NCBI GenBank assembly: GCA_903863905.1
Contig: CAIPDT010000085.1
Coordinates: 1 to 46,034, forward strand
Length of the DNA: 46,034 bases
Reading direction: 5' to 3'
Source: an uncultured Methylococcaceae bacterium
Lineage (GTDB): Bacteria > Pseudomonadota > Gammaproteobacteria > Methylococcales > Methylomonadaceae
The translations under genes and the position numbers were made by a program. Below, one piece after another: positions 4,252-15,755 of the stretch. Under the pieces are notes generated by a model. It ran no database searches, was not told where the DNA came from, and saw only the letters and a list, made by a program, of their open reading frames with translations. The number at the start of each line of letters is the position of its first letter. Position 1 is the first letter of the stretch.

Positions 4252-6267
4252 ATGAAAAAACTACCCTCTATTGTTACCGTCCTATTTGCTGTAATAACAG
4301 CACCTGCAAGCTATGCCGTTGATGATAATATTGTAGAATTAGACGAATTAGTGGTAACTGCACCCTTACAAGATAACGTTTCTGAAGCGGCCGTACCCGT
4401 TACCGTGTTAAGTGATAAAGAGTTGCGTTTAAAGGTGGGGCACACGCTTGGTGAAACACTAAAGAATGAATTAGGCATTACGAGCCAATCATTTGGCCCC
4501 GGGGTAGGCACACCGGTTATTCGTGGCCAAAGTGGCCCGCGCGTGCGAGTATTAAATAATGGGCTTGGCAGTAACGACGTCTCCGCCATTAGCCCTGACC
4601 ACGCCACGAGTGTTGAACCTTTATTAGCCGAGCGAATTGAAGTGTTGCGAGGCCCCGCTTCTTTGCTCTATAGCAGTGGTGCCATAGGTGGCGTAGTTAA
4701 TGTACTCGACAATCGAATTCCTGAGAAATTACCAGATAGATTGGTGGGAGGCGCGGTTGAACAACGCTTCGATTCGGTCTCTGCTGAGTCTTCTACTGTG
4801 TTAAAAGTAGAAGGCGGCAAAAAGAACCTAGCGTATCATTTTGACGGCTTTAATCGTGACCGCAACAATCTTGATATTGGCGGTTCTGCGATAGATATTA
4901 ATGCAGCTCAAGCCACCGATCCAACGCTCTCTGTGATTCAAAACAGCCAAGGCTATATTAATAATACCTCTGCTAAGGCTATCAGTGGTTCTGCCGGCGT
5001 GTCTCTGATTGGAGATCCAGGTTTTGGCGGCATCTCTTTTAACCGCTTAGAAAATAACTACGGGATTGCACCCGATGGTTCGGGGGGGGATATTACTCGA
5101 ATTGAGCTTAAACAAAACAGATACGACTTTAAAAGTGAACTTAAAAAACCCTTTAGTTATGCAGAATCCTTGCGGATGAAACTGGGTTACACGGATTACC
5201 AACACACTGAAATTCCGAATGGTGTAGCGGCTTCATTTTTTACGAATAAAACCTATGAGAGTCGTTTAGAACTGGCTCATAATCCACTGGGACTGTTTCG
5301 CGGCATGGTGGGTTTTCAAGCGCTGGCGGGAGATTTTGCGGCAATTAATAAAGCCACCCATAACGTTATTGTTCCGCAAACGCAAAGTAATAGTTACGGT
5401 GTGTTTGCGGTCGAATCTTTTAATATCGGCGCACTTCCTTCTCAATTGGGTCTCCGCGTTGAGAATACCTCGCTATCGCCAACCGGCTTATCGAACCTAA
5501 GCTATACGCCCGTCAGTGCCTCGGCTTCTAGTCTGTGGAAAATAAATGATAGTCACGCTGTTAACCTTGCCCTAACTCGCTCACAACGAGCGCCACAAGT
5601 ACAAGAATTAACCGTGAACGGTTACCATGATGCCACCCGAAGTTATGAAAAAGGTGATATCAATTTACATGAAGAAACCTCATATAACTTAGATTTAGGC
5701 TATAAATTTAAAGCAGATTGGGTAAGAGCTCAGGTTGATTTGTTTCACAATTGGGCAAATTCTTACATTTACCAACAACGGAATGGCGAGTTTATTAATG
5801 GTGCAGTGGTGCTTAAGAGCAGTCAAGCCGATGCTACTTTTATGGGTTATGAAAGTAAACTGACCTTCCCTTTAGTCCAAAACCACTTTGGCTTGATTGA
5901 GTTAATGTTGTTTAGTGATTTTACGCGCGGGCAATTTATCAGTGGGGGGGATGTACCGCGCATGCCTCCGTTACGTTTCGGTTTTGAGTTAGATCATAGC
6001 AAGGGTGAATGGGACACTAATCTTCGCCTAACACGGGGAGAAACTCAAACTCATGCCGGTGATTTTGATACGCCCACGGCAGGATATTTATTGCTGAGCT
6101 TAGGAACCCAATATCAACTCTTAAATCTGCACGAAGCGGATGTGATGCTGTTTGCCAAAGCGAATAATCTATTAAATGAGAATATCCGCAATTCAACCTC
6201 TTACCTTAGAAACTTCGCGCCCGAACCCGGACGTGGCGCAGAAATTGGCATTAGAGTGACTTATTAA
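4252..6267 (+). CDS. znuD: TonB-dependent outer-membrane receptor, ZnuD-like zinc uptake
   Basis: This 671-residue protein begins with a signal peptide (cleavage likely after A-S-Y-A, about residue 22) and a TonB box-like D-E-L-V-V-T-A segment (about 31-37). A plug domain follows, containing [14 protein letters not shown]-x-N-G (about 87-103) and [21 protein letters not shown] (about 130-150). A long beta-barrel ends in an aromatic residue, I-G-I-R-V-T-Y, as expected for BamA recognition. The plug wording and the Zur partner point to ZnuD, which takes zinc across the outer membrane with TonB energy. The gene lies 90 bp after zur and is probably co-transcribed. A G8 tract (5082-5089) and a G7 tract (5944-5950) occur in the frame. 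The stop codon sits exactly at the break in yjbQ on the other strand. Confidence 0.88.
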
Positions 6268-6453
6268 ATCTTGACGGACAGTTGGGTCGGCATTCTCATT
6301 AATGGTTAATGAAGCCGAGGTATGTTGAATAAACAGGTGTAGCAAGCCACAATCAATCCGCTTTAATTCTGGAATCGCTTTAATGACTTCATCCGTGATC
6401 AGATGAAAGCCTCTACTTTTTGCAGCTAAATTAAATTCTTTTTGTATCCACAT
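6193..6453 (-). pseudogene. yjbQ: yjbQ remnant (UPF0047), 3' half missing
   Basis: The first 62 codons match YjbQ well: M-W-I-Q-K-E-F near the start, [11 protein letters not shown], and [22 protein letters not shown]. YjbQ proteins are normally about 138 residues and continue with a glycine-rich second half and an R-H-R-x-H-G-G-type motif. Here homology stops at codon 62 (base 6268), directly next to the stop codon of the TonB receptor on the opposite strand. The remaining 24 codons are antisense of the receptor gene. The true remnant is therefore 6268-6453, and the second half is not found elsewhere in the window. YjbQ has been linked to thiamine phosphate synthase activity; this fragment is unlikely to be active. 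Confidence 0.8.
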
Positions 6454-6456
6454 AGA

Positions 6457-6804
6457 TTAATATTTGCTCATTAAAGAAACATACGCCATTAAACAATCGG
6501 CCTCTGACTCGACTTGCCAATGCGGTAATTGTTCATGCGCGGCAAAGGCATTGTGCAATTCTTGAATTTCTCTGGGCACATCCAGTACCCGCTCACCCTC
6601 TAATACTGCGGTGACTTGATCAATAGTGAGGCTATTGTTTTCAATCGCTAAGGATACCTGAATACTACGAATACAGTTGCTTCGACGTAATTGAGGCGCT
6701 AAAGACGCTTGACTGGAAATTTGCCACCGTGTTAATAACGCAACAATATCGGCAACTTGTTGCAGTATTTTTGGGGTGATGGTGTAAGGGGGGTGATAGC
6801 TCAT
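6457..6804 (-). pseudogene. Fic-family protein, N-terminal fragment
   Basis: The 115-residue frame matches the N-terminal helical domain of Fic/DUF4172-type proteins: M-S-Y-x-P-P-Y-T-I-T-x-x-I-L-Q at the start, L-R-R-S-N-C-I-R-S-I-Q-x-S-L-A-I-E-x-N-S-L, then V-L-E-G-x-R-V-x-x-x-P-R-E-I-Q-E. It stops near L-M-S-K-Y, where the family reaches the A-H-x-x-L-M helix, so the catalytic HPFxxGNGR motif for AMP transfer is absent. The broken yjbQ begins three bases after the stop. The gene starts 14 bp downstream of the nuclease-like partner gene on the same strand. A second, shorter copy of the same 5' end lies at 8883-8975. It might be expressed as a small protein, but it cannot be a working Fic enzyme. 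Confidence 0.75.
6733..6804 (-). repeat. Direct repeat copy 1 (fic 5' end)
   Basis: This 72-bp stretch aligns without gaps to 8904-8975, with 12 mismatches (about 83% identity), in the same orientation. It covers the start codon and first 24 codons of the fic fragment. The two copies flank the ATPase/nuclease-like gene pair. Confidence 0.8.
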
Positions 6805-6818
6805 TAATCAAGAATCTA

Positions 6819-7442
6819 TTAAATACGCGTAGATTTACTTACCAATTGAATTTTATCAAAGAGCCTTCCCACATGTACAAAGCCCTCATAGTTTTTAACT
6901 GACACAGAGACTGAGCGAAAAGCAGACTGCTTAAACCTGCCCTCATTTGGCTTATAAACACTATTTTTCTGAGGGCGAGTAGTCGTCACAATAGTACGCT
7001 GAAAAATAACGTCTGAAATATCTTGATCATAATGATATTTCAGCAAGGACAATAAATATTGCACATACAGTTCAGAATTGAGTAACTGAGTTTCTGTTTT
7101 TTTAAGCCTGGGCTTGTCAGACTTCAAATCTAAAATTAATACCTTCCATGTATTTTTAGCGGCCATAACAATGACAAGATCACAACTTTTATTGATCTTT
7201 TCACTGGCAGGATTTAAATAACATGACAGTTGTTTAAAACATTTAGAATCTTTATGGGTTCCATGATCCAATGTAAACGCGAGACTTTGTTCTGGCAGAC
7301 CCGTGATATGTAATTTTTTAATTTTGCTATCTGGCGCACTCTCTTTTAAAATCAACTCGCCTTCACTTGGATCGTCTTCCTTGAAACTGATATTGATTAA
7401 AATCTCTGGCAAAATTACATCTTGCAATTTTATCAACATCAC
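6819..7442 (-). CDS. Partner protein of AAA ATPase with PD-(D/E)xK-like motif
   Basis: No named family recognised. The protein has 206-207 residues with no signal peptide or membrane segment. The middle holds C-D88-L-V-I-V, then a hydrophobic strand leading into I-L-D105-L-K107-S, followed by a helix with Q119, N122-S-E-L-Y-V-Q-Y-L. Asp...Asp-x-Lys plus a downstream Gln helix is the layout of restriction-endonuclease-like nucleases, so a nuclease or nuclease-derived fold is inferred. The start is GTG at 7442 (sharing its G with the TAG stop of the ATPase gene) or ATG at 7439; either implies translational coupling and a stoichiometric complex. The flanking fic fragments and type I R-M operon support a defence role. 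Alternatives are a toxin-like or purely structural partner. Confidence 0.7.
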   Translation of the reverse strand: MMLIKLQDVILPEILINISFKEDDPSEGELILKESAPDSKIKKLHITGLPEQSLAFTLDHGTHKDSKCFKQLSCYLNPASEKINKSCDLVIVMAAKNTWKVLILDLKSDKPRLKKTETQLLNSELYVQYLLSLLKYHYDQDISDVIFQRTIVTTTRPQKNSVYKPNEGRFKQSAFRSVSVSVKNYEGFVHVGRLFDKIQLVSKSTRI

Positions 7443-8800
7443 TACTCCCCAATACGATAATAAATGTCATCGGCAGCTTGATTCGAATCGGCAATAAGCT
7501 CATCAAAGATAGTCATATTAATACCAAACTTATCGACGTTAACACGGGTTATTGCATGACCTGAACCAATGTTGTAAGCAGAAATTTGCTCCGGCTTAAG
7601 AATATCTTGTTCAATAAATCCTTGCTTCTTCATTAATTCATGCTTGTTTTTTATTTCATTACTAAACATGATGCAGTTATTGAGTTCTCGAATTAAATAA
7701 TCACTATGCGTTGTCACTATGATCTTTATCCCTGAATTAACTAAACGCGCCAAGAAACGCGCCATAATTCTCTGGTTATCAGGGTGTAAATTTAACTCTG
7801 GTTCATCAATAATAAGTAATCCATTTTTTTCAGCTAAACAATTTACATAATAATCAAAAAGAAATATAGATTTAGTTGATGATGAAGCTATATAAACCGG
7901 AACAACTATCTTTTCTCTTCCCCGTTCTTTTTTAGGTTGGAAAAACACTTGTTTATCAATACTCTTAAAAGCTCCACCTAATAACTCCTGTAAAACATCA
8001 AACACGCCTTGATACTTTTCCTTATCTTCTTTTAGAAAGCTTTTCCTTTTACTGACATTTTCATAATCTCTAATAACATCAATATTATCTTTGATGGGCT
8101 CAGCATATCGAGACCGCATACTATTCAGTAATTCGATTGGATTCACTTTATCATTATCAGATAAATGTTCAAAAATTGCGTTCTTACTAATATCGAGCTC
8201 TTTATAAAACAGTGCAATTCCTGTTCGCTCAGAAGTAATTACAAAAGGCAACGGTAATTGCCCAGAAAAAAGACAGGTGGCAACTTGCTCTGCAATAATG
8301 TCACTTAATATGCCAAGAGGAATTTGAGCTCCACCGCTAGTTTGTAGGGCAATATCAAGTTTGTCAGTGTTTTCTGCCTTATCAAATCTTAATATCCCAT
8401 GCTTTCCAAAATTGATTGTTTTCTTAAATAAACTTGAAAAATCTGGCTTAAAATCATCATAAACAAATTCGATTTTAGTGTTCTGAAAGTAATCATCAGG
8501 CGCATTAAAGAAACCTTCAAGACCATTAGTGAAATTGTCGCTAGCACTTTTAAAACAAGACTGAATTCGCTCAGACAAACCTAAAAGATCAATCTGAATA
8601 GCTCCATTTTCTTCAAGCTCATCCATTTGATGCTTTTCAATGTGAAACTCTGCCAAGCGCTGAAGTTTTTTAAAAAAACCATAAGTTGCGTAACTGATGT
8701 AGGTCTTGCCGACATTATTTTTTCCACAAAGAATGGTAAGGTCAGCAAGCTCAACCTCCCCCTTATCGATATAACCAAATTGAGTGAATTTAAATTTCAT
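7442..8800 (-). CDS. AAA/ABC-type ATPase of the OLD/RloA kind (AAA_15-like)
   Basis: This 452-residue ATPase has its Walker A at residues 26-33 (GKNNVGKT). A long helical, partly charged insert (about 40-290) follows, then a signature-like S-S-S-T-K-S segment (about 306-311), Walker B L-L-I-I-D-E-P-E (328-335) followed by L-N-L-H-P, and an H-loop T-T-H-S-D-Y-L-I (363-370). This is the SMC/Rad50-like arrangement seen in OLD nucleases, RloA, AriA and similar defence ATPases. No Toprim domain is visible after the H-loop; the last 80 residues are a short helical tail, so any effector activity should come from the coupled downstream protein. ATG at 8800 is preceded by AAAGAGATAAA. The module lies between two fic fragments, which suggests acquisition as a cassette. 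Confidence 0.85.
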   Translation of the reverse strand: MKFKFTQFGYIDKGEVELADLTILCGKNNVGKTYISYATYGFFKKLQRLAEFHIEKHQMDELEENGAIQIDLLGLSERIQSCFKSASDNFTNGLEGFFNAPDDYFQNTKIEFVYDDFKPDFSSLFKKTINFGKHGILRFDKAENTDKLDIALQTSGGAQIPLGILSDIIAEQVATCLFSGQLPLPFVITSERTGIALFYKELDISKNAIFEHLSDNDKVNPIELLNSMRSRYAEPIKDNIDVIRDYENVSKRKSFLKEDKEKYQGVFDVLQELLGGAFKSIDKQVFFQPKKERGREKIVVPVYIASSSTKSIFLFDYYVNCLAEKNGLLIIDEPELNLHPDNQRIMARFLARLVNSGIKIIVTTHSDYLIRELNNCIMFSNEIKNKHELMKKQGFIEQDILKPEQISAYNIGSGHAITRVNVDKFGINMTIFDELIADSNQAADDIYYRIGE

Positions 8801-8882: not shown

Positions 8883-8975
8883 TTAATACGCAACACACCG
8901 CATTAATAATGCAATACAATCGGCAACTTGTTGCAATATTTTAAGAGTGAAGGTGTAAGGCAGTTGATAGCTCAT
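8883..8975 (-). pseudogene. Second fic 5' relic, 30 codons
   Basis: From ATG at 8975-8973, thirty codons can be read before TAA at 8885-8883. They begin M-S-Y-Q-L-P-Y-T-F-T-L-K-I-L-Q-Q-V-A-D, clearly the same protein start as the fic fragment at 6804. The ATG overlaps the hsdS stop codon (ATGA), the arrangement expected if an intact fic gene once followed hsdS in the R-M operon. It is too short to be a Fic domain. Confidence 0.75.
8904..8975 (-). repeat. Direct repeat copy 2 (fic 5' end)
   Basis: Mate of 6733-6804, same orientation, about 83% identical over 72 bp. Similarity extends a few bases further left in both copies (a shared CACCG), then ends. The repeats frame a segment of about 2.1 kb holding the ATPase and its partner. 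Confidence 0.8.
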
Positions 8976-10507
8976 GCTTTTGTTTTTTTGCCGGTTTTCT
9001 TAGGTTTCACAACCATTTCACGTTCAGCTTTGATTCTGGATAATAAAGCTTCTGCACTGTTTTCACCACTGATGAGTTCAGGGTTTTGAACACGCCATTC
9101 GGCAGTGAGTTCACCTCGAAAAGCTTTGGCTAGGATAGCTTGGGTAAGATGGTTAACGCGAGATTGGGCATCTTTAACACGTTGCTCGATTTGGTCAGCG
9201 TAAGTGAAGAGTTGTTCGACGCGGGCGACGATTTCGGTTTGTTCTTCAATACTGGGCTTTGGTAAGTTAATATCTAGGAATGTTTTTTGACCAATATTTC
9301 TCATTGATAGCTGATTACCGGTAGATCGAGATTCAATTTCTTTTCGCCCAAAATATGATCTCAAAAATATACTTAACCACATTTTATCCGCTTCATTCAT
9401 CACTAGCCGCCAAACTTTATCACTAAGCATCAAGTTTTTTAATACGTCTTTGACAATCACAGGCATTCCAATCAATTCAAGTGTATTTGCTCTGGATATT
9501 AGAAAATCACCGGACTTAATCCGCCGACTTTCTACAAATAATTTGTGATCAGGTAACGTCTTACTTTCGTTTTCGTCATAGATTCCCCATGTAACAGCAC
9601 TGATTTTTATAATACCGTGCTGATCTCCAACTGGTGGTGTCTCGATACACTTCAAGTTCTTTCCAGCTTCAATAGACTTAACCAATTTCCCTATTTTTGT
9701 TTCGCGCCAATCACCTTCTGAAATTAGATTTTCTATTCTCCAATCCTCAGTCAACTTCCCACTAACCGCAGCGGCGAGGACTGATTGACGGAAGCGTTTG
9801 AGGATTTTTGGGATATTGTCGAGGCGAGTTTTAAGGTTATCGACCTGCGCCAATAACTCATCCAACTTAGCAGCAATTTGTTGTTGTTCGGCGAGTGGAG
9901 GAAGTGGAATAAAAATCTGAGAATATTCTTTAAACTTGAGGTTTCTTAAGTTATTGCTTCCAGCTTGATATTTAATTACCTCACCAGATAAATAAAAACA
10001 TTTCAGATAATAATTTAAGAATGTTGAATCAACATTTACTATAGGCCTTGCCAATCTTAAGAAGTTTGTACAAACAAGCTGTTTTCCAACGAATTGGTTA
10101 ATAACTCTTTCATCAATTATTACTGTTCGTCCTACAGGCTGATCAGGCCCACCGCCAGAAATCTCAATTAAAATATCATCTAGTCTCAATTGTCGAGTTT
10201 GCAAACTTGAGTGTTTTATTTTACGTAATGATGCCGAAGCACCTCTATATTTATCCCAGTGTTTAAATTCAGACCCTCTAATACAAAAAGCATCAACAAA
10301 ATCTATATGTTCAAAATCACAGTCTTTTCCCCAGTCACCACCGATAACAAAACCAAATAACGACTCCAATTCAATTTCTTGCCATTCTATTGGCAGTATT
10401 AAATATTTAGTTTGAGGCGAGAAAGTCAATTCACGTAAATTACCATTAGCAATTAAGGTTTGCTCTTGCAATTCATTTTCATTAGCTAGCTTTATTGATT
10501 CATTCAT
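8972..10507 (-). CDS. hsdS: Type I restriction-modification specificity subunit HsdS
   Basis: HsdS recognises the two halves of the target DNA and links HsdM and HsdR. The 511-residue protein has two target-recognition domains (roughly 30-215 and 265-415). Each is followed by a conserved helical spacer opening with P-L-P-x-L-x-E-Q-x-x-I (about 205) or L-P-K-P-S-I-E-E-Q-x-E-I (about 415), then a long helix ending in Q-S-V-L-A-A-A-V-S-G-K-L-T or Q-A-I-L-A-K-A-F-R-G-E-L-T. I chose ATG at 10507 with GAG nine bases upstream; ATG at 10513 is equally possible. The frame stays open to a GTG at 10567, but that start lies within a terminator hairpin and is unlikely. The lysine-rich tail ends at a stop overlapping the fic relic. 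Confidence 0.92.
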   Translation of the reverse strand: MNESIKLANENELQEQTLIANGNLRELTFSPQTKYLILPIEWQEIELESLFGFVIGGDWGKDCDFEHIDFVDAFCIRGSEFKHWDKYRGASASLRKIKHSSLQTRQLRLDDILIEISGGGPDQPVGRTVIIDERVINQFVGKQLVCTNFLRLARPIVNVDSTFLNYYLKCFYLSGEVIKYQAGSNNLRNLKFKEYSQIFIPLPPLAEQQQIAAKLDELLAQVDNLKTRLDNIPKILKRFRQSVLAAAVSGKLTEDWRIENLISEGDWRETKIGKLVKSIEAGKNLKCIETPPVGDQHGIIKISAVTWGIYDENESKTLPDHKLFVESRRIKSGDFLISRANTLELIGMPVIVKDVLKNLMLSDKVWRLVMNEADKMWLSIFLRSYFGRKEIESRSTGNQLSMRNIGQKTFLDINLPKPSIEEQTEIVARVEQLFTYADQIEQRVKDAQSRVNHLTQAILAKAFRGELTAEWRVQNPELISGENSAEALLSRIKAEREMVVKPKKTGKKTKA

Positions 10508-10534
10508 AATCATTAGCTCACTATATCCCAGACA

Positions 10535-10590
10535 TAAAAAACCCGCGCGATTTGAGCATAAGAACACAAGTTCTCATAGGCTTGGCGGGT
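10535..10590 (-). terminator. Terminator-like hairpin between hsdM and hsdS
   Basis: Read on the minus strand, ACCCGC (10590-10585) pairs with GCGGGT (10546-10541), an inner GAAC..GTTC stem closes over a TTGT loop, and a run of six T follows directly (10541-10536). The middle of the stem is imperfect. It lies about 45 bp after hsdM and before the likely hsdS start, so it may attenuate hsdS relative to hsdRM. Confidence 0.6.
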
Positions 10591-10633
10591 CTGTTACCGT
10601 GCATTGTATCAAAGAGTGCTTGATGAATGTGGC

Positions 10634-12247
10634 TCATTCCAAACTCCCCGCACCCAAGCCCAATACCTCAGCCAACAATTCAGTCTGCACTTGTGCCTGA
10701 TCGCCAGCCCCCAGTGCTTGCATTAAATCATTTAACTCTCTCAAAGCTTCAGTCAATTCACTCATGGCTTCTGCTGCCAATACATCCGGCTCTGGCAAAC
10801 TCGCCGCATCCACACTGTCTTGATCTTTAAGCCAAGCAATATCTAAAGAATCGCCTTTCTGTGTGTTAATCCAGTCGCGAGAAAAAAACCGCCAGCGCGT
10901 TGGTAACTCAACATCTGTTGCACTCTCATCAATTGCGTTAATTTGGCCCTGGGCTTCTTGACGCTCTGAGGCATGAAAACAATCTTCAAACGGTTTTAAA
11001 TACTGATCACTAAACGGTGTTCGTTTACCAAAACTAGGCATGTTGGTACGCAAATCATAAACCCAAACTTGTTGGGTACAGTGTTCATCTTGCAGTGGAT
11101 TCTCTGCCGTGCCTTTGGTAAAAAAAAGCACATTGGTTTTAACGCCTTGGGCATAAAAGATACCCGTTGGTAATCTGAGGATGGTATGCAAATTACATTT
11201 ATGCATTAAATCTCGGCGAATATCCGTACCCACACCCGCTTCAAATAATACATTATCAGGCAACACCACCGCCGCACGACCCGCAGGTTTTAGGCTACGG
11301 TAGATATGCTGTAAAAAGGCCAGTTGTTTGTTACTGGTTTTATAAGTAAAGTCATCACGCGTGGGACCGCCGCCGCCTTTAGCCGTACCAAACGGCGGAT
11401 TAGTTAAAATCACATCAGCAGCTGACAGTTGCGTACCGGGTAAACCCAAGGTATTGCCTAAGTGCACCACACCTTCATCGTCGCCTTCCATGCCGTGTAA
11501 CAAACAGTTCATCAACGCTAAACGCCGCGTACCCGGCACTAGTTCCATACCCACAAAGGCTTTATTACGTTGAAAGGTTTGGGCTTGCTCGTTTAGATTA
11601 TAAAGCTCATCAGTGTGACCTTTAATATAGGCATCAGCCGCAATTAAAAAACCAGCGGTTCCGGCAGCGGGGTCTTGAATCACTTCACCAGCTTGCGGTT
11701 TTATACACCGAATAATGCTGTCGATTAAAGGCCGTGGTGTAAAGTATTGGCCTGCACCTGATTTGGTTTCACTGGCATTCTTTTCTAATAAGCCTTCGTA
11801 TAAATCCCCCAAGCCATCGCGTCTAGCACTAAACCAGTCGATGCTGTCTAAGGATTTAATCAGTTGTTCTAAATGCCGTGGTTCGCGTAAGCGGGTTTGC
11901 GCATCGGCGTAAATGGCTAAGATTAAGGGGTCGGTGATAACGACTTTTTCAATGGTTTTATCGGCATCGTTAGGGTCTTTGCTGATTTCTTTACCCGTTG
12001 AAAGGGTAAACAGCATACGCTTATATTCGGTCAACAGAGATAAGCCACTTTTGCTATTCAAATCCGGCCAGCGGCAACCTTCTGGGAGTTTATGCTTATC
12101 CAACAATCTGGCTTCGGTATTTTCAAATTCCATTTTAATGAATAACAGTAATACTAGCTCAGTCACATAATCACTGTAGTTAATGCCGTCGTCACGCAAT
12201 ACGTCACAGAGGTTCCAAAGTTTTTGTACGATGTCGTTGTTATTCAT
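10634..12247 (-). CDS. hsdM: Type I restriction-modification methyltransferase HsdM
   Basis: N6-adenine DNA methyltransferase subunit. Its 537 residues hold an N-terminal helical HsdM domain (1-130), G-Q-Y-F-T-P at 166-171, AdoMet-binding motif I D-P-A-A-G-T-A-G-F (192-200), and catalytic motif IV N-P-P-F (283-286). Motif IV marks a gamma-type adenine methylase. The C-terminal stretch after about 480 is acidic and helical and likely contacts HsdS. The gene follows hsdR by 34 bp on the same strand and precedes hsdS. All essential motifs are present, so modification should be functional. Confidence 0.95.
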   Translation of the reverse strand: MNNNDIVQKLWNLCDVLRDDGINYSDYVTELVLLLFIKMEFENTEARLLDKHKLPEGCRWPDLNSKSGLSLLTEYKRMLFTLSTGKEISKDPNDADKTIEKVVITDPLILAIYADAQTRLREPRHLEQLIKSLDSIDWFSARRDGLGDLYEGLLEKNASETKSGAGQYFTPRPLIDSIIRCIKPQAGEVIQDPAAGTAGFLIAADAYIKGHTDELYNLNEQAQTFQRNKAFVGMELVPGTRRLALMNCLLHGMEGDDEGVVHLGNTLGLPGTQLSAADVILTNPPFGTAKGGGGPTRDDFTYKTSNKQLAFLQHIYRSLKPAGRAAVVLPDNVLFEAGVGTDIRRDLMHKCNLHTILRLPTGIFYAQGVKTNVLFFTKGTAENPLQDEHCTQQVWVYDLRTNMPSFGKRTPFSDQYLKPFEDCFHASERQEAQGQINAIDESATDVELPTRWRFFSRDWINTQKGDSLDIAWLKDQDSVDAASLPEPDVLAAEAMSELTEALRELNDLMQALGAGDQAQVQTELLAEVLGLGAGSLE

Positions 12248-12281
12248 TAATGGGTATTATTAGCAGAAAAAGAGGAGTAGT

Positions 12282-15200
12282 TTAACCGATTGCTTGCCAT
12301 AGGTTCTCATTGAGTGCTTCCAGCACTTTATCCAGATCACCGTCCAGTAGGCTATTTAACCGTTTTGCACCACCGTCTTGGGCAAAGGCACGATTAACAA
12401 AGTTATGATCGATGACCACTTCAAGAATAAGTTGTTTAGCGAGACGCTCCAGCCATTTACGTTGTACGTTTGACCAGTTATGCTGCATGTAGATTTTTTG
12501 CATGGCATTATTAACCCTCTGTTCAAAGGGCAACAAAGCCTCCCCTAAAGCTGCCTGACGAATATAGCCAACAATACTGGCGGCAATCTCCTGATGGGTT
12601 TGATTGCGCCAGGCTGTTTTTAATTTGGCTTCACTGTAGCCGTGTTCATCCAGTAACAAACGCACTTCTTTAAGTTGTTCGCGGGTCAGGTCTTTGGGGT
12701 TATTGATAATAACACCCAAGGAGACCGACTGGTTAATCTGATTACGGATAAAATGGTTAAAGCTGTCTAAATAATCAGCGGGCTTTTCATTGACGCCATA
12801 AGTCTGGGTACGTTTTTTAAATTCATCAGTCCCTTCGTAAATTAAGGGGTTTTTATCAGAACCTAATAACTCATTCACTTCGGCTAATTGCTTGAGAAAA
12901 CGGCTATGCGTTTGCACAAATTGAGCGGCTTGTTGTGGGCCTAACTGATGTAAATGCTGAGGTAGTTTTTTAAGCTCAATCCCCCACAGTGCTTGCAGTT
13001 CTTGAAGTTTTTGCTTGAGCTCTGGTTTTTGTTCGGCTTTTTTATCCGCTTTACGCAAGATACGCATCACCTTTTGACTCACCACAGCCAAGACATCGTG
13101 AGCATGACTGGTATTGGGTTTATTACCTTGCACCGCATGACTATTGGGATCGACTAATTCTTGTAGCAATTGCTCCAGTGTAATATTGGGATCTTTAACC
13201 AAAGGCTTCATGGCGCTCACTGCTTGCAATGCGGCATAAATATCCACGGGATCATATATTTTAAAGACGGTCTTACCGATTTGATCACAACGACGCGTGC
13301 CACGGCCTAGCATTTGTTCAAACAAAATACGTGAACGTACTCGACGTAAAAACACAATATGACAGATTGCAGGTACATCAATACCGGTGCTGAGTAAATC
13401 AACGGTGATGGCAATCGAGGGGTACTTTTCATTTTTGTATTGCCGTATGAGTTTTTTAACTTTATCGCTTTGCCCAGTTATTTTACGAACGGCGGCTTCG
13501 TTATACTCATCGTCATAAAGGACTTTAAAAGCATCATCCAATAAACGCTTAACCATGTCAGCATGTAAATCTGTGGCACAAAATATCAGGGTTTTCTCTA
13601 AGCCAAAGGGCTCTAATTCTTTGGCCAGTTGCTCACAAATCACCTTGTTAAAACTTTCGGTTATAACCCGACGGTTAAAGGCTTCTACCTCAAAATCAAG
13701 CTCATCGTCTAACTCTGCCAATTCTATGGCACCAGTTTGAGTATTAATCACACTGACTTTCTCACCTTTTTCAAAATGAATACCTTTTTGTGTCAGCAAG
13801 GTTTCATAGCGAATGGGCGGCTCATGATCAATTAACCAATCATCGGCCACTGCTTCTCGATAACTGTAGGTGTAGACTGGTTTTCCAAAAATCTCAGTGG
13901 TATGTTTAGCGGGGGTGGCGGTTAAGGCAATTTTAACGGCATCAAAATAATCTAAGACGCGACGATAACAAGAGAGGTATTGCGCCACCTCTCGGATGGT
14001 TAATTCGCCTTCGGTCATTTCTTGATCCAGCGTATAACCCCGATGCGCTTCGTCAATGATAATGCAGTCATACGCATCAATATTCGGCGGAGTATCCGAT
14101 TGAAAAATACGTTTGACCATTGCTTGAACAGTAGCGACTTGAATACGAGTTTCAGCTTCTGCGGCCATATCGCCCAACTCGGCAATATTGTAAATTTTAG
14201 AGAGCGTTAAATTATGCTCTAACGGCGCATCATTAAAAAAGTCTATGGCCTGCTCACCCAAAGCTGTGCGATCGACTAAGAATAAGATACGTTTAAAGTG
14301 TTCAGCTTTTAAAAAGCGATACATCAAACCGATAATAGTACGGGTTTTACCGGTACCGGTCGCCATCGCTAAAAGGCAGTTAGTTTGATTCTGAGCTAAA
14401 GCTGCTTCTACGGCAGTAATCGCCTTTTGTTGATAGTCTCGTAATTTAAGATAAGCAAAACCTTCGTCTTGCAGTTTCTGTTGAGCCTCAATCTGACTAC
14501 GTTTTAATTTATCCAGTAACCCTTCAGGGCTATGAAAATCATGGAGTGGCTTGGCAAGATTAGCAGTTTCTCTGACATCACGAAACCAAGTTCCGGATTG
14601 TTCAGCGAGTTGTTTAACATAAGGCCGACCATTGCAGGAATACACGAACGGAATTTGATAATGACCTTCTTCAGAATCTGCCCAAGCAATAGTACGGCCT
14701 TGTAATTGCCAGCTGGGTAACAAGCCTTCTGCTTGTTTAAAGCCACGTGAATAACGCTCTGCTTGCAGAATTTTACCGGCGACATTGGTGTTTTCACGTT
14801 TGGCCTCTACGATTGCGATCGCTGTTAAACCTGCAAATAATACATAGTCGGCCGATTGCTTGCCTTGGGTGGGCCATTCTGCAATGGCTTTGTTTTTACC
14901 TTTCTCGGGTCGCGCCCCGTTTGCATGCGTTAACACTTGGGTATCGGCTTCCCATCCGGCGACTATTAATTGTTGATCAATTAGAATACGGGTAAGTTCT
15001 TCATTTAAAGACAGTTGGGCAGTGGCTTTATTAACCGTAGCACTGATAAATTCGGTTCGATTCTCTTTATCATCTAACTTGGCCTGCAGGGCTTTAAGCC
15101 GAAGCTCAAAGGCTTTTCTTTCTTCAACCAATTGACGCTCATGTTCTTGCGCCAGTTGCTCAAACACTCGGGCTTCTTCATCCATTTGTTCAGCCAGTAG

Positions 15201-15755
15201 GGAAAATTGCTCTTTCTCTTTGGCCACTAAGGTGATTAATTGCTGATTATTTTCTACTTGTTCATTAGCATCCGATAATTGAGCTTTAAGCTGTTTAATC
15301 TGAATCGTTAACGCTTGTAACTGTTGACTGGGATCAGTCGGTGCAACAAAGACCCCCGGCTTAAAGCGGGCCCCTTGTTTTCCAAAGGCTTGATGAAACC
15401 AAACCGCTAAAGCTCTCGCCAGGCGTAAGCCGTCTAAAGCTTCTTTGTGTTGGGTTTTAAATTGATGGGTCGCACGATTGCCTTCGGTGCGTAAAGTATG
15501 GAATAGTTCAAGGATATTGGCATCAAGGCGTATTTCTCGACCCACTTTAAACAGTAAGTCCGCTTGCGAGGTTTTGTCGTTAAACTCAATGCCACACCGG
15601 GCGGCTAAATCTTGAGCTAAGGCTTCACCCAATTGTCGGAGTTTGATTAAGGTGGTGTTGGGATCACCGACAAATGCCCGTTCAGCAGAGGCAGCTAATT
15701 GAAAAAAAAGAGCATCATGTTCCCTTAGAAAATCAAAGTTACTCTTCTCAATCAT
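12282..15755 (-). CDS. hsdR: Type I restriction endonuclease/translocase HsdR (EcoEI-like)
   Basis: This 1157-residue motor and nuclease subunit starts with a DUF4145-like helical domain (about 10-125) and a long coiled coil (about 145-235). The nuclease core follows, with D303...E317-x-K319 in A-D-Y-V-L-F...I-V-E-A-K. Superfamily 2 helicase motifs are next: G-T-G-K-T (467-471), D-E-A-H (568-571), and a later S-T-G-I-D-V-P plus Q-M-L-G-R-G-T-R-R motif VI. The C-terminal 200 residues match the EcoEI-type HsdR C-terminal domain in character. It is the first gene of hsdR-hsdM-hsdS. The frame is intact, so restriction is likely active. The length agrees with EcoEI-family subunits that carry the N-terminal DUF4145 extension. 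Confidence 0.93.
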   Translation of the reverse strand: MIEKSNFDFLREHDALFFQLAASAERAFVGDPNTTLIKLRQLGEALAQDLAARCGIEFNDKTSQADLLFKVGREIRLDANILELFHTLRTEGNRATHQFKTQHKEALDGLRLARALAVWFHQAFGKQGARFKPGVFVAPTDPSQQLQALTIQIKQLKAQLSDANEQVENNQQLITLVAKEKEQFSLLAEQMDEEARVFEQLAQEHERQLVEERKAFELRLKALQAKLDDKENRTEFISATVNKATAQLSLNEELTRILIDQQLIVAGWEADTQVLTHANGARPEKGKNKAIAEWPTQGKQSADYVLFAGLTAIAIVEAKRENTNVAGKILQAERYSRGFKQAEGLLPSWQLQGRTIAWADSEEGHYQIPFVYSCNGRPYVKQLAEQSGTWFRDVRETANLAKPLHDFHSPEGLLDKLKRSQIEAQQKLQDEGFAYLKLRDYQQKAITAVEAALAQNQTNCLLAMATGTGKTRTIIGLMYRFLKAEHFKRILFLVDRTALGEQAIDFFNDAPLEHNLTLSKIYNIAELGDMAAEAETRIQVATVQAMVKRIFQSDTPPNIDAYDCIIIDEAHRGYTLDQEMTEGELTIREVAQYLSCYRRVLDYFDAVKIALTATPAKHTTEIFGKPVYTYSYREAVADDWLIDHEPPIRYETLLTQKGIHFEKGEKVSVINTQTGAIELAELDDELDFEVEAFNRRVITESFNKVICEQLAKELEPFGLEKTLIFCATDLHADMVKRLLDDAFKVLYDDEYNEAAVRKITGQSDKVKKLIRQYKNEKYPSIAITVDLLSTGIDVPAICHIVFLRRVRSRILFEQMLGRGTRRCDQIGKTVFKIYDPVDIYAALQAVSAMKPLVKDPNITLEQLLQELVDPNSHAVQGNKPNTSHAHDVLAVVSQKVMRILRKADKKAEQKPELKQKLQELQALWGIELKKLPQHLHQLGPQQAAQFVQTHSRFLKQLAEVNELLGSDKNPLIYEGTDEFKKRTQTYGVNEKPADYLDSFNHFIRNQINQSVSLGVIINNPKDLTREQLKEVRLLLDEHGYSEAKLKTAWRNQTHQEIAASIVGYIRQAALGEALLPFEQRVNNAMQKIYMQHNWSNVQRKWLERLAKQLILEVVIDHNFVNRAFAQDGGAKRLNSLLDGDLDKVLEALNENLWQAIG

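What the first reader, a model, noticed from the sequence alone, without database searches (positions are those of the whole stretch)
6819..8800. Two-gene ATPase plus nuclease-like unit, candidate undescribed defence system
An OLD/RloA-like ATPase (Walker A 26-33, Walker B 328-335, H-loop 363-370) without its own Toprim or nuclease domain overlaps by one base a 207-residue protein that has D88...D105-x-K107 plus a Gln/Asn helix, the layout of PD-(D/E)xK nucleases. It resembles in logic PARIS, RloAB or Septu, but the partner is neither DUF4435 nor RloB nor HNH as far as I can see. It sits beside a type I R-M operon and fic debris. Motifs are seen; the nuclease fold and defence role are inferred.
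Basis: partly seen in the sequence, partly recalled or inferred. Interest (0 to 1): 0.75.

Follow-up and report, generated by a model that had tools for sequence, protein, structure and literature searches.

The report
PD-T4-4 phage-defence gene pair
The two genes are a member of PD-T4-4, an anti-phage system already found by experiment in E. coli, in which an ATPase is thought to sense infection and switch on a partner nuclease; the finding is real but not new.

Summary
Window 6819-8800 (minus strand) encodes a 452-aa OLD/ABC-type ATPase (A) and, touching it, a 207-aa protein (B) with a PD-(D/E)xK motif. The pair is not undescribed: PADLOC models call both genes PD-T4-4, A at E 9.6e-151 (residues 1-450) and B at E 1.1e-46 (residues 2-164). 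PD-T4-4 came from selection with phage T4 in E. coli (PMC9519451); a 2025 paper relates it to WonAB, ABC-ATPase sensors with PD-(D/E)xK effectors (PMC12137116). The nuclease inference is supported: over 114 B sequences, window included, D88, D/E105, K107 and Q119 are kept in 112, 112, 109 and 110. B's predicted fold is confident (pLDDT 88.9), but no solved structure matches it significantly. All 90 B-profile hits among 6570 ORFs of 120 loci fetched through A lie at the end of an A. Best mechanism: an ATP-dependent A dimer senses infection and licenses B, which cuts nucleic acid, more likely RNA, as proposed for WonAB. Trigger and target are untested. Local oddity: an 83%-identical 80-nt repeat of a fic gene's 5' end brackets the pair.

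The parts
7442..8800 (-). PD-T4-4 A: 452-aa OLD/ABC-type ATPase, putative sensor/regulator
   Evidence: PADLOC PD-T4-4_A E 9.6e-151; Pfam AAA_15 E 1.2e-26; K32, D332, E333 invariant in 58 aligned sequences; model pLDDT 89.7, nearest solved folds PtuA of Septu and retrons
6819..7442 (-). PD-T4-4 B: 207-aa (206 from ATG 7439) predicted PD-(D/E)xK nuclease effector; E34, D59, D88, D105-x-K107, Q119
   Evidence: PADLOC PD-T4-4_B E 1.1e-46; conservation in 114 B sequences; model pLDDT 88.9; Foldseek top hits BsmI, not significant
8896..8975 (-). upstream copy of an 80-nt direct repeat: 5' end of a fic gene, its start overlapping the hsdS stop
   Evidence: 83% identity to 6725-6804; 63% aa identity over 30 residues to the other fragment
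6457..6804 (-). second truncated fic 5' fragment (115 codons) directly downstream of B
   Evidence: 59-78% identity over 97-114 residues to the 11 relatives' loci fetched, most of them in longer open frames; one read in full carries HPFADGNGRMGR (L178)
8972..15755 (-). neighbouring type I R-M operon hsdR-hsdM-hsdS (context, not part of the pair)
   Evidence: PADLOC REase_I, MTase_I, Specificity_I; Pfam

Best explanation
The pair is a PD-T4-4 anti-phage system. A forms an ATP-bound ABC/OLD-type dimer that senses infection and holds or licenses B. B is a divergent PD-(D/E)xK nuclease that, once licensed, cuts nucleic acid and stops phage production. By analogy with WonAB, I think the target is more likely RNA needed for translation (tRNA or rRNA), giving growth arrest, than phage or host DNA. 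The confidence given is for PD-T4-4 membership and an A-licensed nuclease; the RNA-target step alone I put at about 0.55. Shown here: membership by profile, intact open frames, conserved motifs, constant pairing in the loci examined, predicted folds of the single chains. Shown by others for relatives: phage defence (PD-T4-4, WonAB) and the need for both genes and both active sites (WonAB). Inferred: the A-B complex in this organism, the trigger, the substrate and the outcome for the cell.
For: PADLOC PD-T4-4_A 501 bits over 1-450 and PD-T4-4_B 157 bits over 2-164; next named systems for A are the related candidate PDC-M47A (366 bits) and AriA (94 bits). B motif kept in 109-112 of 114. Of 93 full-length A homologues, 85 have a B of at least 150 aa starting within -90..400 bases, 65 of these sharing at least one base when the first possible start is taken. 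All 90 B-profile hits among 6570 ORFs of 120 loci start between 112 bases before and 300 bases after the end of an A match: 86 by script, 4 (L054, L074, L142, L146) read from coordinates. Searches that started from B instead also found A upstream: 7 of 7 places and 7 of 7. B model pLDDT 88.9, pTM 0.86: D88 lies just before strand 89-95, D105 in strand 98-106, Q119 in helix 113-138, followed by strand 145-154, the order of a PD-(D/E)xK core as I recall it. WonAB: K71A of WonB or WonA ATP-site mutants abolish defence; WonB overproduction stops translation and leaves DNA intact.
Against: No solved structure matches B significantly: Foldseek best E 0.014; the four BsmI rows have probability 0.57-0.92. 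Profile search of the PDB gives one hit, a lactate dehydrogenase at E 0.27; viral models give no E<=0.001. The RNA target is only proposed for WonAB, and WonA and WonB were not aligned here. PMC9519451 says that 7 of 11 systems with DNase-like components gave direct immunity, not abortive infection, and the text I read does not say which class PD-T4-4 is in. 5 of 114 B rows lack K107. The last 43 residues of B are outside the PD-T4-4_B match.
Confidence: 0.9

Rival explanations
1. Same system and fold, but B is a DNase: A senses or loads on foreign DNA and B cuts phage DNA directly, so that infected cells survive.
For: 12 of the 50 Foldseek rows shown for B are type II restriction or nicking enzymes (BsmI, Bse634I, FokI, EcoO109I, BamHI, PaqCI, Nt.BspD6I), though none is significant; 7 of 11 systems with DNase-like components in PMC9519451 gave direct immunity; A also resembles Rad50 and SMC heads.
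Against: Overproduction of WonB, a studied relative, leaves chromosomal DNA intact and stops translation; the nearest folds of A are PtuA of Septu and retrons, and one Septu cleaves tRNA-Tyr (PMC13096335, abstract).
Confidence: 0.35
2. A two-gene toxin-antitoxin pair in which A simply neutralises B, with phage defence secondary.
For: Tightly packed two-gene unit with an enzyme toxin candidate.
Against: For WonAB, WonB is toxic only when WonA is present and ATPase-active, which rules out simple sequestration there.
Confidence: 0.05
3. A genuinely undescribed system.
For: No Pfam or NCBIfam name for B.
Against: Both genes match PADLOC PD-T4-4 models, A over its whole length and B over residues 2-164 of 207.
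Confidence: 0.02

Closest known systems
PD-T4-4 (PMC9519451)
   Same: Both proteins match its PADLOC models; order ATPase then nuclease; touching genes.
   Different: Diverged: A 40% and B 35% identical to an E. coli plasmid copy (L049). Activity, phage range and target untested for this copy. Context is a type I R-M/fic locus, not the ICE-like element described for E. coli. The validated E. coli proteins themselves were not aligned.
WonAB (V. cholerae WASA-1 prophage, PMC12137116)
   Same: OLD-like ABC ATPase plus PD-(D/E)xK effector, same logic; the authors call PD-T4-4 similar.
   Different: WonB is smaller (16.1 kDa); [quoted passage not shown] No direct alignment was made here.
Septu / retron PtuAB
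   Same: Nearest solved folds to A (Foldseek E from 4.8e-10); ATPase plus separate nuclease.
   Different: PtuB is an HNH nuclease (recalled; the retron entries name an HNH nuclease); B has no HNH hit and carries D-(D/E)xK-Q.
PDC-M47 (PADLOC candidate)
   Same: A matches PDC-M47A at 366 bits, B matches PDC-M47B at 24 bits.
   Different: Weaker than PD-T4-4 on both genes; probably a sister group of the same kind (inference).

Membership tests
PD-T4-4 | ATPase matching PD-T4-4_A | tested here: met
   E 9.6e-151, 501 bits, residues 1-450 on profile 1-458 of 460
PD-T4-4 | partner matching PD-T4-4_B | tested here: met
   E 1.1e-46, 157 bits, residues 2-164 on profile 1-165 of 206; the last 43 residues are not matched
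PD-T4-4 | two genes adjacent, A upstream of B | tested here: met
   same in 85 of 93 full-length A homologues
PD-T4-4 | PD-(D/E)xK-type effector | tested here: met
   motif conserved in 109-112 of 114, order of elements in the model; no significant match to a solved structure
PD-T4-4 | protection against T-even phages | not testable with these tools
   needs plaque assays
WonAB | OLD-like ABC ATPase with WonB-type PD-(D/E)xK partner | not tested
   architecture is alike by the paper's account; WonA and WonB sequences were not fetched or aligned
Septu | HNH partner PtuB | tested here: not met
   B has no Pfam hit at E<=1 and no PtuB among its five PADLOC families
PARIS | DUF4435 partner AriB | tested here: not met
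   no Pfam hit for B at E<=1 (that Pfam holds DUF4435 is recalled); no AriB among the five PADLOC families that match B
Gabija | Toprim in the ATPase protein and a UvrD-like GajB | tested here: not met
   no Toprim among the Pfam hits of A; no helicase family among hits of B
RloAB | RloB-type partner | tested here: not met
   no hit for B in Pfam or NCBIfam at E<=1, none to an RloB in PADLOC; that these libraries hold an RloB model is recalled, not checked

The most novel reading that the evidence does not exclude
PD-T4-4 B, and with it this broad ABC-ATPase-licensed group, is an RNA-cutting branch of the PD-(D/E)xK fold, a fold best known for DNA cutting, so that this pair would stop phage by disabling tRNA or rRNA; and such pairs spread as cassettes exchanged at recurrent hsdS-fic junctions.
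Probability: 0.3. Interest if true: 0.45.

Novelty: new member of a known kind. Interest (0 to 1): 0.15.

Why it matters
It adds one more member to a validated defence family for which I found no worked-out mechanism: the library holds 3 papers naming PD-T4-4, and the passages seen give none. The alignment shows which residues of B to mutate (E34, D59, D88, D105, K107, Q119), and that B diverges faster than A while the pairing holds. It does not open a new class.

Tried and rejected
Undescribed system: rejected. HNH, DUF4435, RloB or Toprim: no hits. Single-protein scan of genome contigs: no relatives; the alignment scan worked. Solved-structure search for B by sequence or profile: nothing credible. 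Foldseek for B against PDB and viral models: no E<=0.001. The second structural aligner was not available.

Neighbourhood test: PADLOC at E<=1e-20 on 79 of the 128 nearest genes (the first in list order, because of the tool's residue limit; genes of 150-1500 aa only) gave 135 families, each in at most 2 members; the 25 shown include types I, IIG and III R-M, DrmMI and HEC-06. The same on 53 of 78 genes at least 5 kb away gave 5 families, each in 1 member. One protein can match many models and the tool does not give the number of members with any hit, so this is suggestive only.

Empty site for the pair: not found or tested. In relatives, 3 of the 8 genes scanned upstream of fic are hsdS; upstream genes of the other 3 of 11 loci were not scanned, and the window's own hsdS matched none of the 11.

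Full report
Observation. The one-base overlap depends on a GTG start; the next codon is ATG (7439) and the family profile aligns from there.

Identity. PADLOC models give PD-T4-4_A at E 9.6e-151 for the ATPase and PD-T4-4_B at E 1.1e-46 for the partner, each ahead of every other model. Pfam gives AAA_15 for A and nothing for B; NCBIfam names neither, its best match for A (PtuA) lying far below its cut-off. PD-T4-4 was isolated by functional selection with phage T4 in E. coli (PMC9519451; passages and section 7 seen). A review table (PMC10952713, passages) lists PD-T4-4 under PD(D/E)XK and AAA. The WonAB paper (PMC12137116; passages and sections 7, 9 and 14 seen) models PD-T4-4 beside WonAB and an in-silico 'OLD-ABC ATPase + Novel REase' operon; a review (PMC12409358, passages) credits that operon class to Krishnan et al., which I did not see. 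The WonAB authors suggest a larger family of ABC-ATPase sensors paired with nuclease effectors.

Relatives. Own genome included, PD-T4-4_A occurs in 33 of 311 genomes of the order at E<=1e-40, the window's own B as a single query finds 7 of 311, and one PD-T4-4_B model (PDLC04035) is found in 6 of 398 genomes of the phylum and 0 of 14 control genomes. So B diverges faster than A. In some searches each of the 7 places found through B has an A just upstream. In one search, 34 partners were taken by position next to A; an iterative profile search linked all 34 to the window B, but that database held only partners, so its E-values flatter. Of 93 full-length A there, 85 have a B of at least 150 aa downstream. 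The other 8: three have under 480 bases left on the contig (L069, L082, L093); L060 and L123 have short B-like pieces; L101 has a weakly B-like start in frame with a methyltransferase-like domain; L074 has a B whose listed ORF starts further upstream; L085 has none found. All 90 B-profile hits in 6570 ORFs of these loci lie at the end of an A match (four read from coordinates). The loci were fetched through A, so a lone B elsewhere in these genomes would not have been seen.

Motif. Over 114 B sequences (window, 34 and 79 new) the columns read: E34 105 E and 7 D; D59 101 D and 10 E; D88 112 D; 105 is 87 E and 25 D; K107 109 K; Q119 110 Q. This is the PD-(D/E)xK set with a following Gln helix. 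In A, K32, D332, E333, S366 and D367 are invariant in 58 rows and H365 is 57 of 58.

Structure. B: pLDDT 88.9, pTM 0.86. Foldseek finds no significant match; ranks 1, 2, 3 and 5 are the restriction enzyme BsmI (E 0.014-0.095), and 12 of the 50 rows shown are type II restriction or nicking enzymes among many unrelated proteins. I take this as weak support for a divergent PD-(D/E)xK fold; motif conservation carries most of the weight. A: pLDDT 89.7; nearest solved folds are PtuA of Septu and retrons, then SMC and Rad50 heads.

Mechanism. Best reading: an ATP-dependent A dimer senses infection and licenses B, which cuts nucleic acid. In WonAB both genes and both active sites are needed, WonB is toxic only with ATPase-active WonA, and translation stops while DNA stays intact, so the authors suggest tRNA or rRNA as target. 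Carrying that over to this pair is inference; a DNase is the main rival.

Context. hsdR, hsdM and hsdS match type I R-M models over most of their length. Two 5' fragments of fic genes, 115 and 30 codons, give an 80-nt direct repeat at 6725-6804 and 8896-8975 (83% identity) that brackets the pair. In the 201 genomes of the family searched, 46 have a relative of the longer piece, often in an open frame of about 340 aa; 3 of 8 genes scanned upstream of it are hsdS, and in L178 the fic start overlaps the hsdS stop as in the window. The pair therefore looks like a cassette placed at an hsdS-fic junction; how it got there was not shown. Elsewhere the system sits on small Col-type plasmids (pKPN6, 4259 bp; pSCU-105-5, 4802 bp), on a conjugative plasmid and in a Peduoviridae phage of Vibrio.

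Verdict. A real and, as far as sequence shows, intact new member of PD-T4-4. Interest 0.15.

Noticed in passing
window 6725-6804 and 8896-8975: 80-nt direct repeat (83%) of a fic gene's 5' end brackets the pair, suggesting cassette insertion or exchange at an hsdS-fic junction.
   Followed up: partly
window 6193-6453: UPF0047 ORF matches only profile positions 2-51 of 117 and then overlaps the end of the TonB-receptor gene on the other strand: apparently a truncated remnant beside the fic remnant.
   Followed up: no
L101:9386-10474: A weakly B-like start (E 1e-4) in frame with a SAM-methyltransferase-like domain (362 aa; motif read by eye) next to an A homologue in a Spirochaetaceae MAG.
   Followed up: no
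L048 (pKPN6) and L049 (pSCU-105-5): 4.3-4.8 kb Col-type plasmids on which the PD-T4-4 pair is the main annotated cargo.
   Followed up: partly
L104:10149-17378: A type I R-M operon related to the window's (hsdR 43%, hsdM 53% identity) lies directly downstream of a PD-T4-4 pair in a Limnothrix MAG; L070 has a more distant one upstream of its pair.
   Followed up: partly
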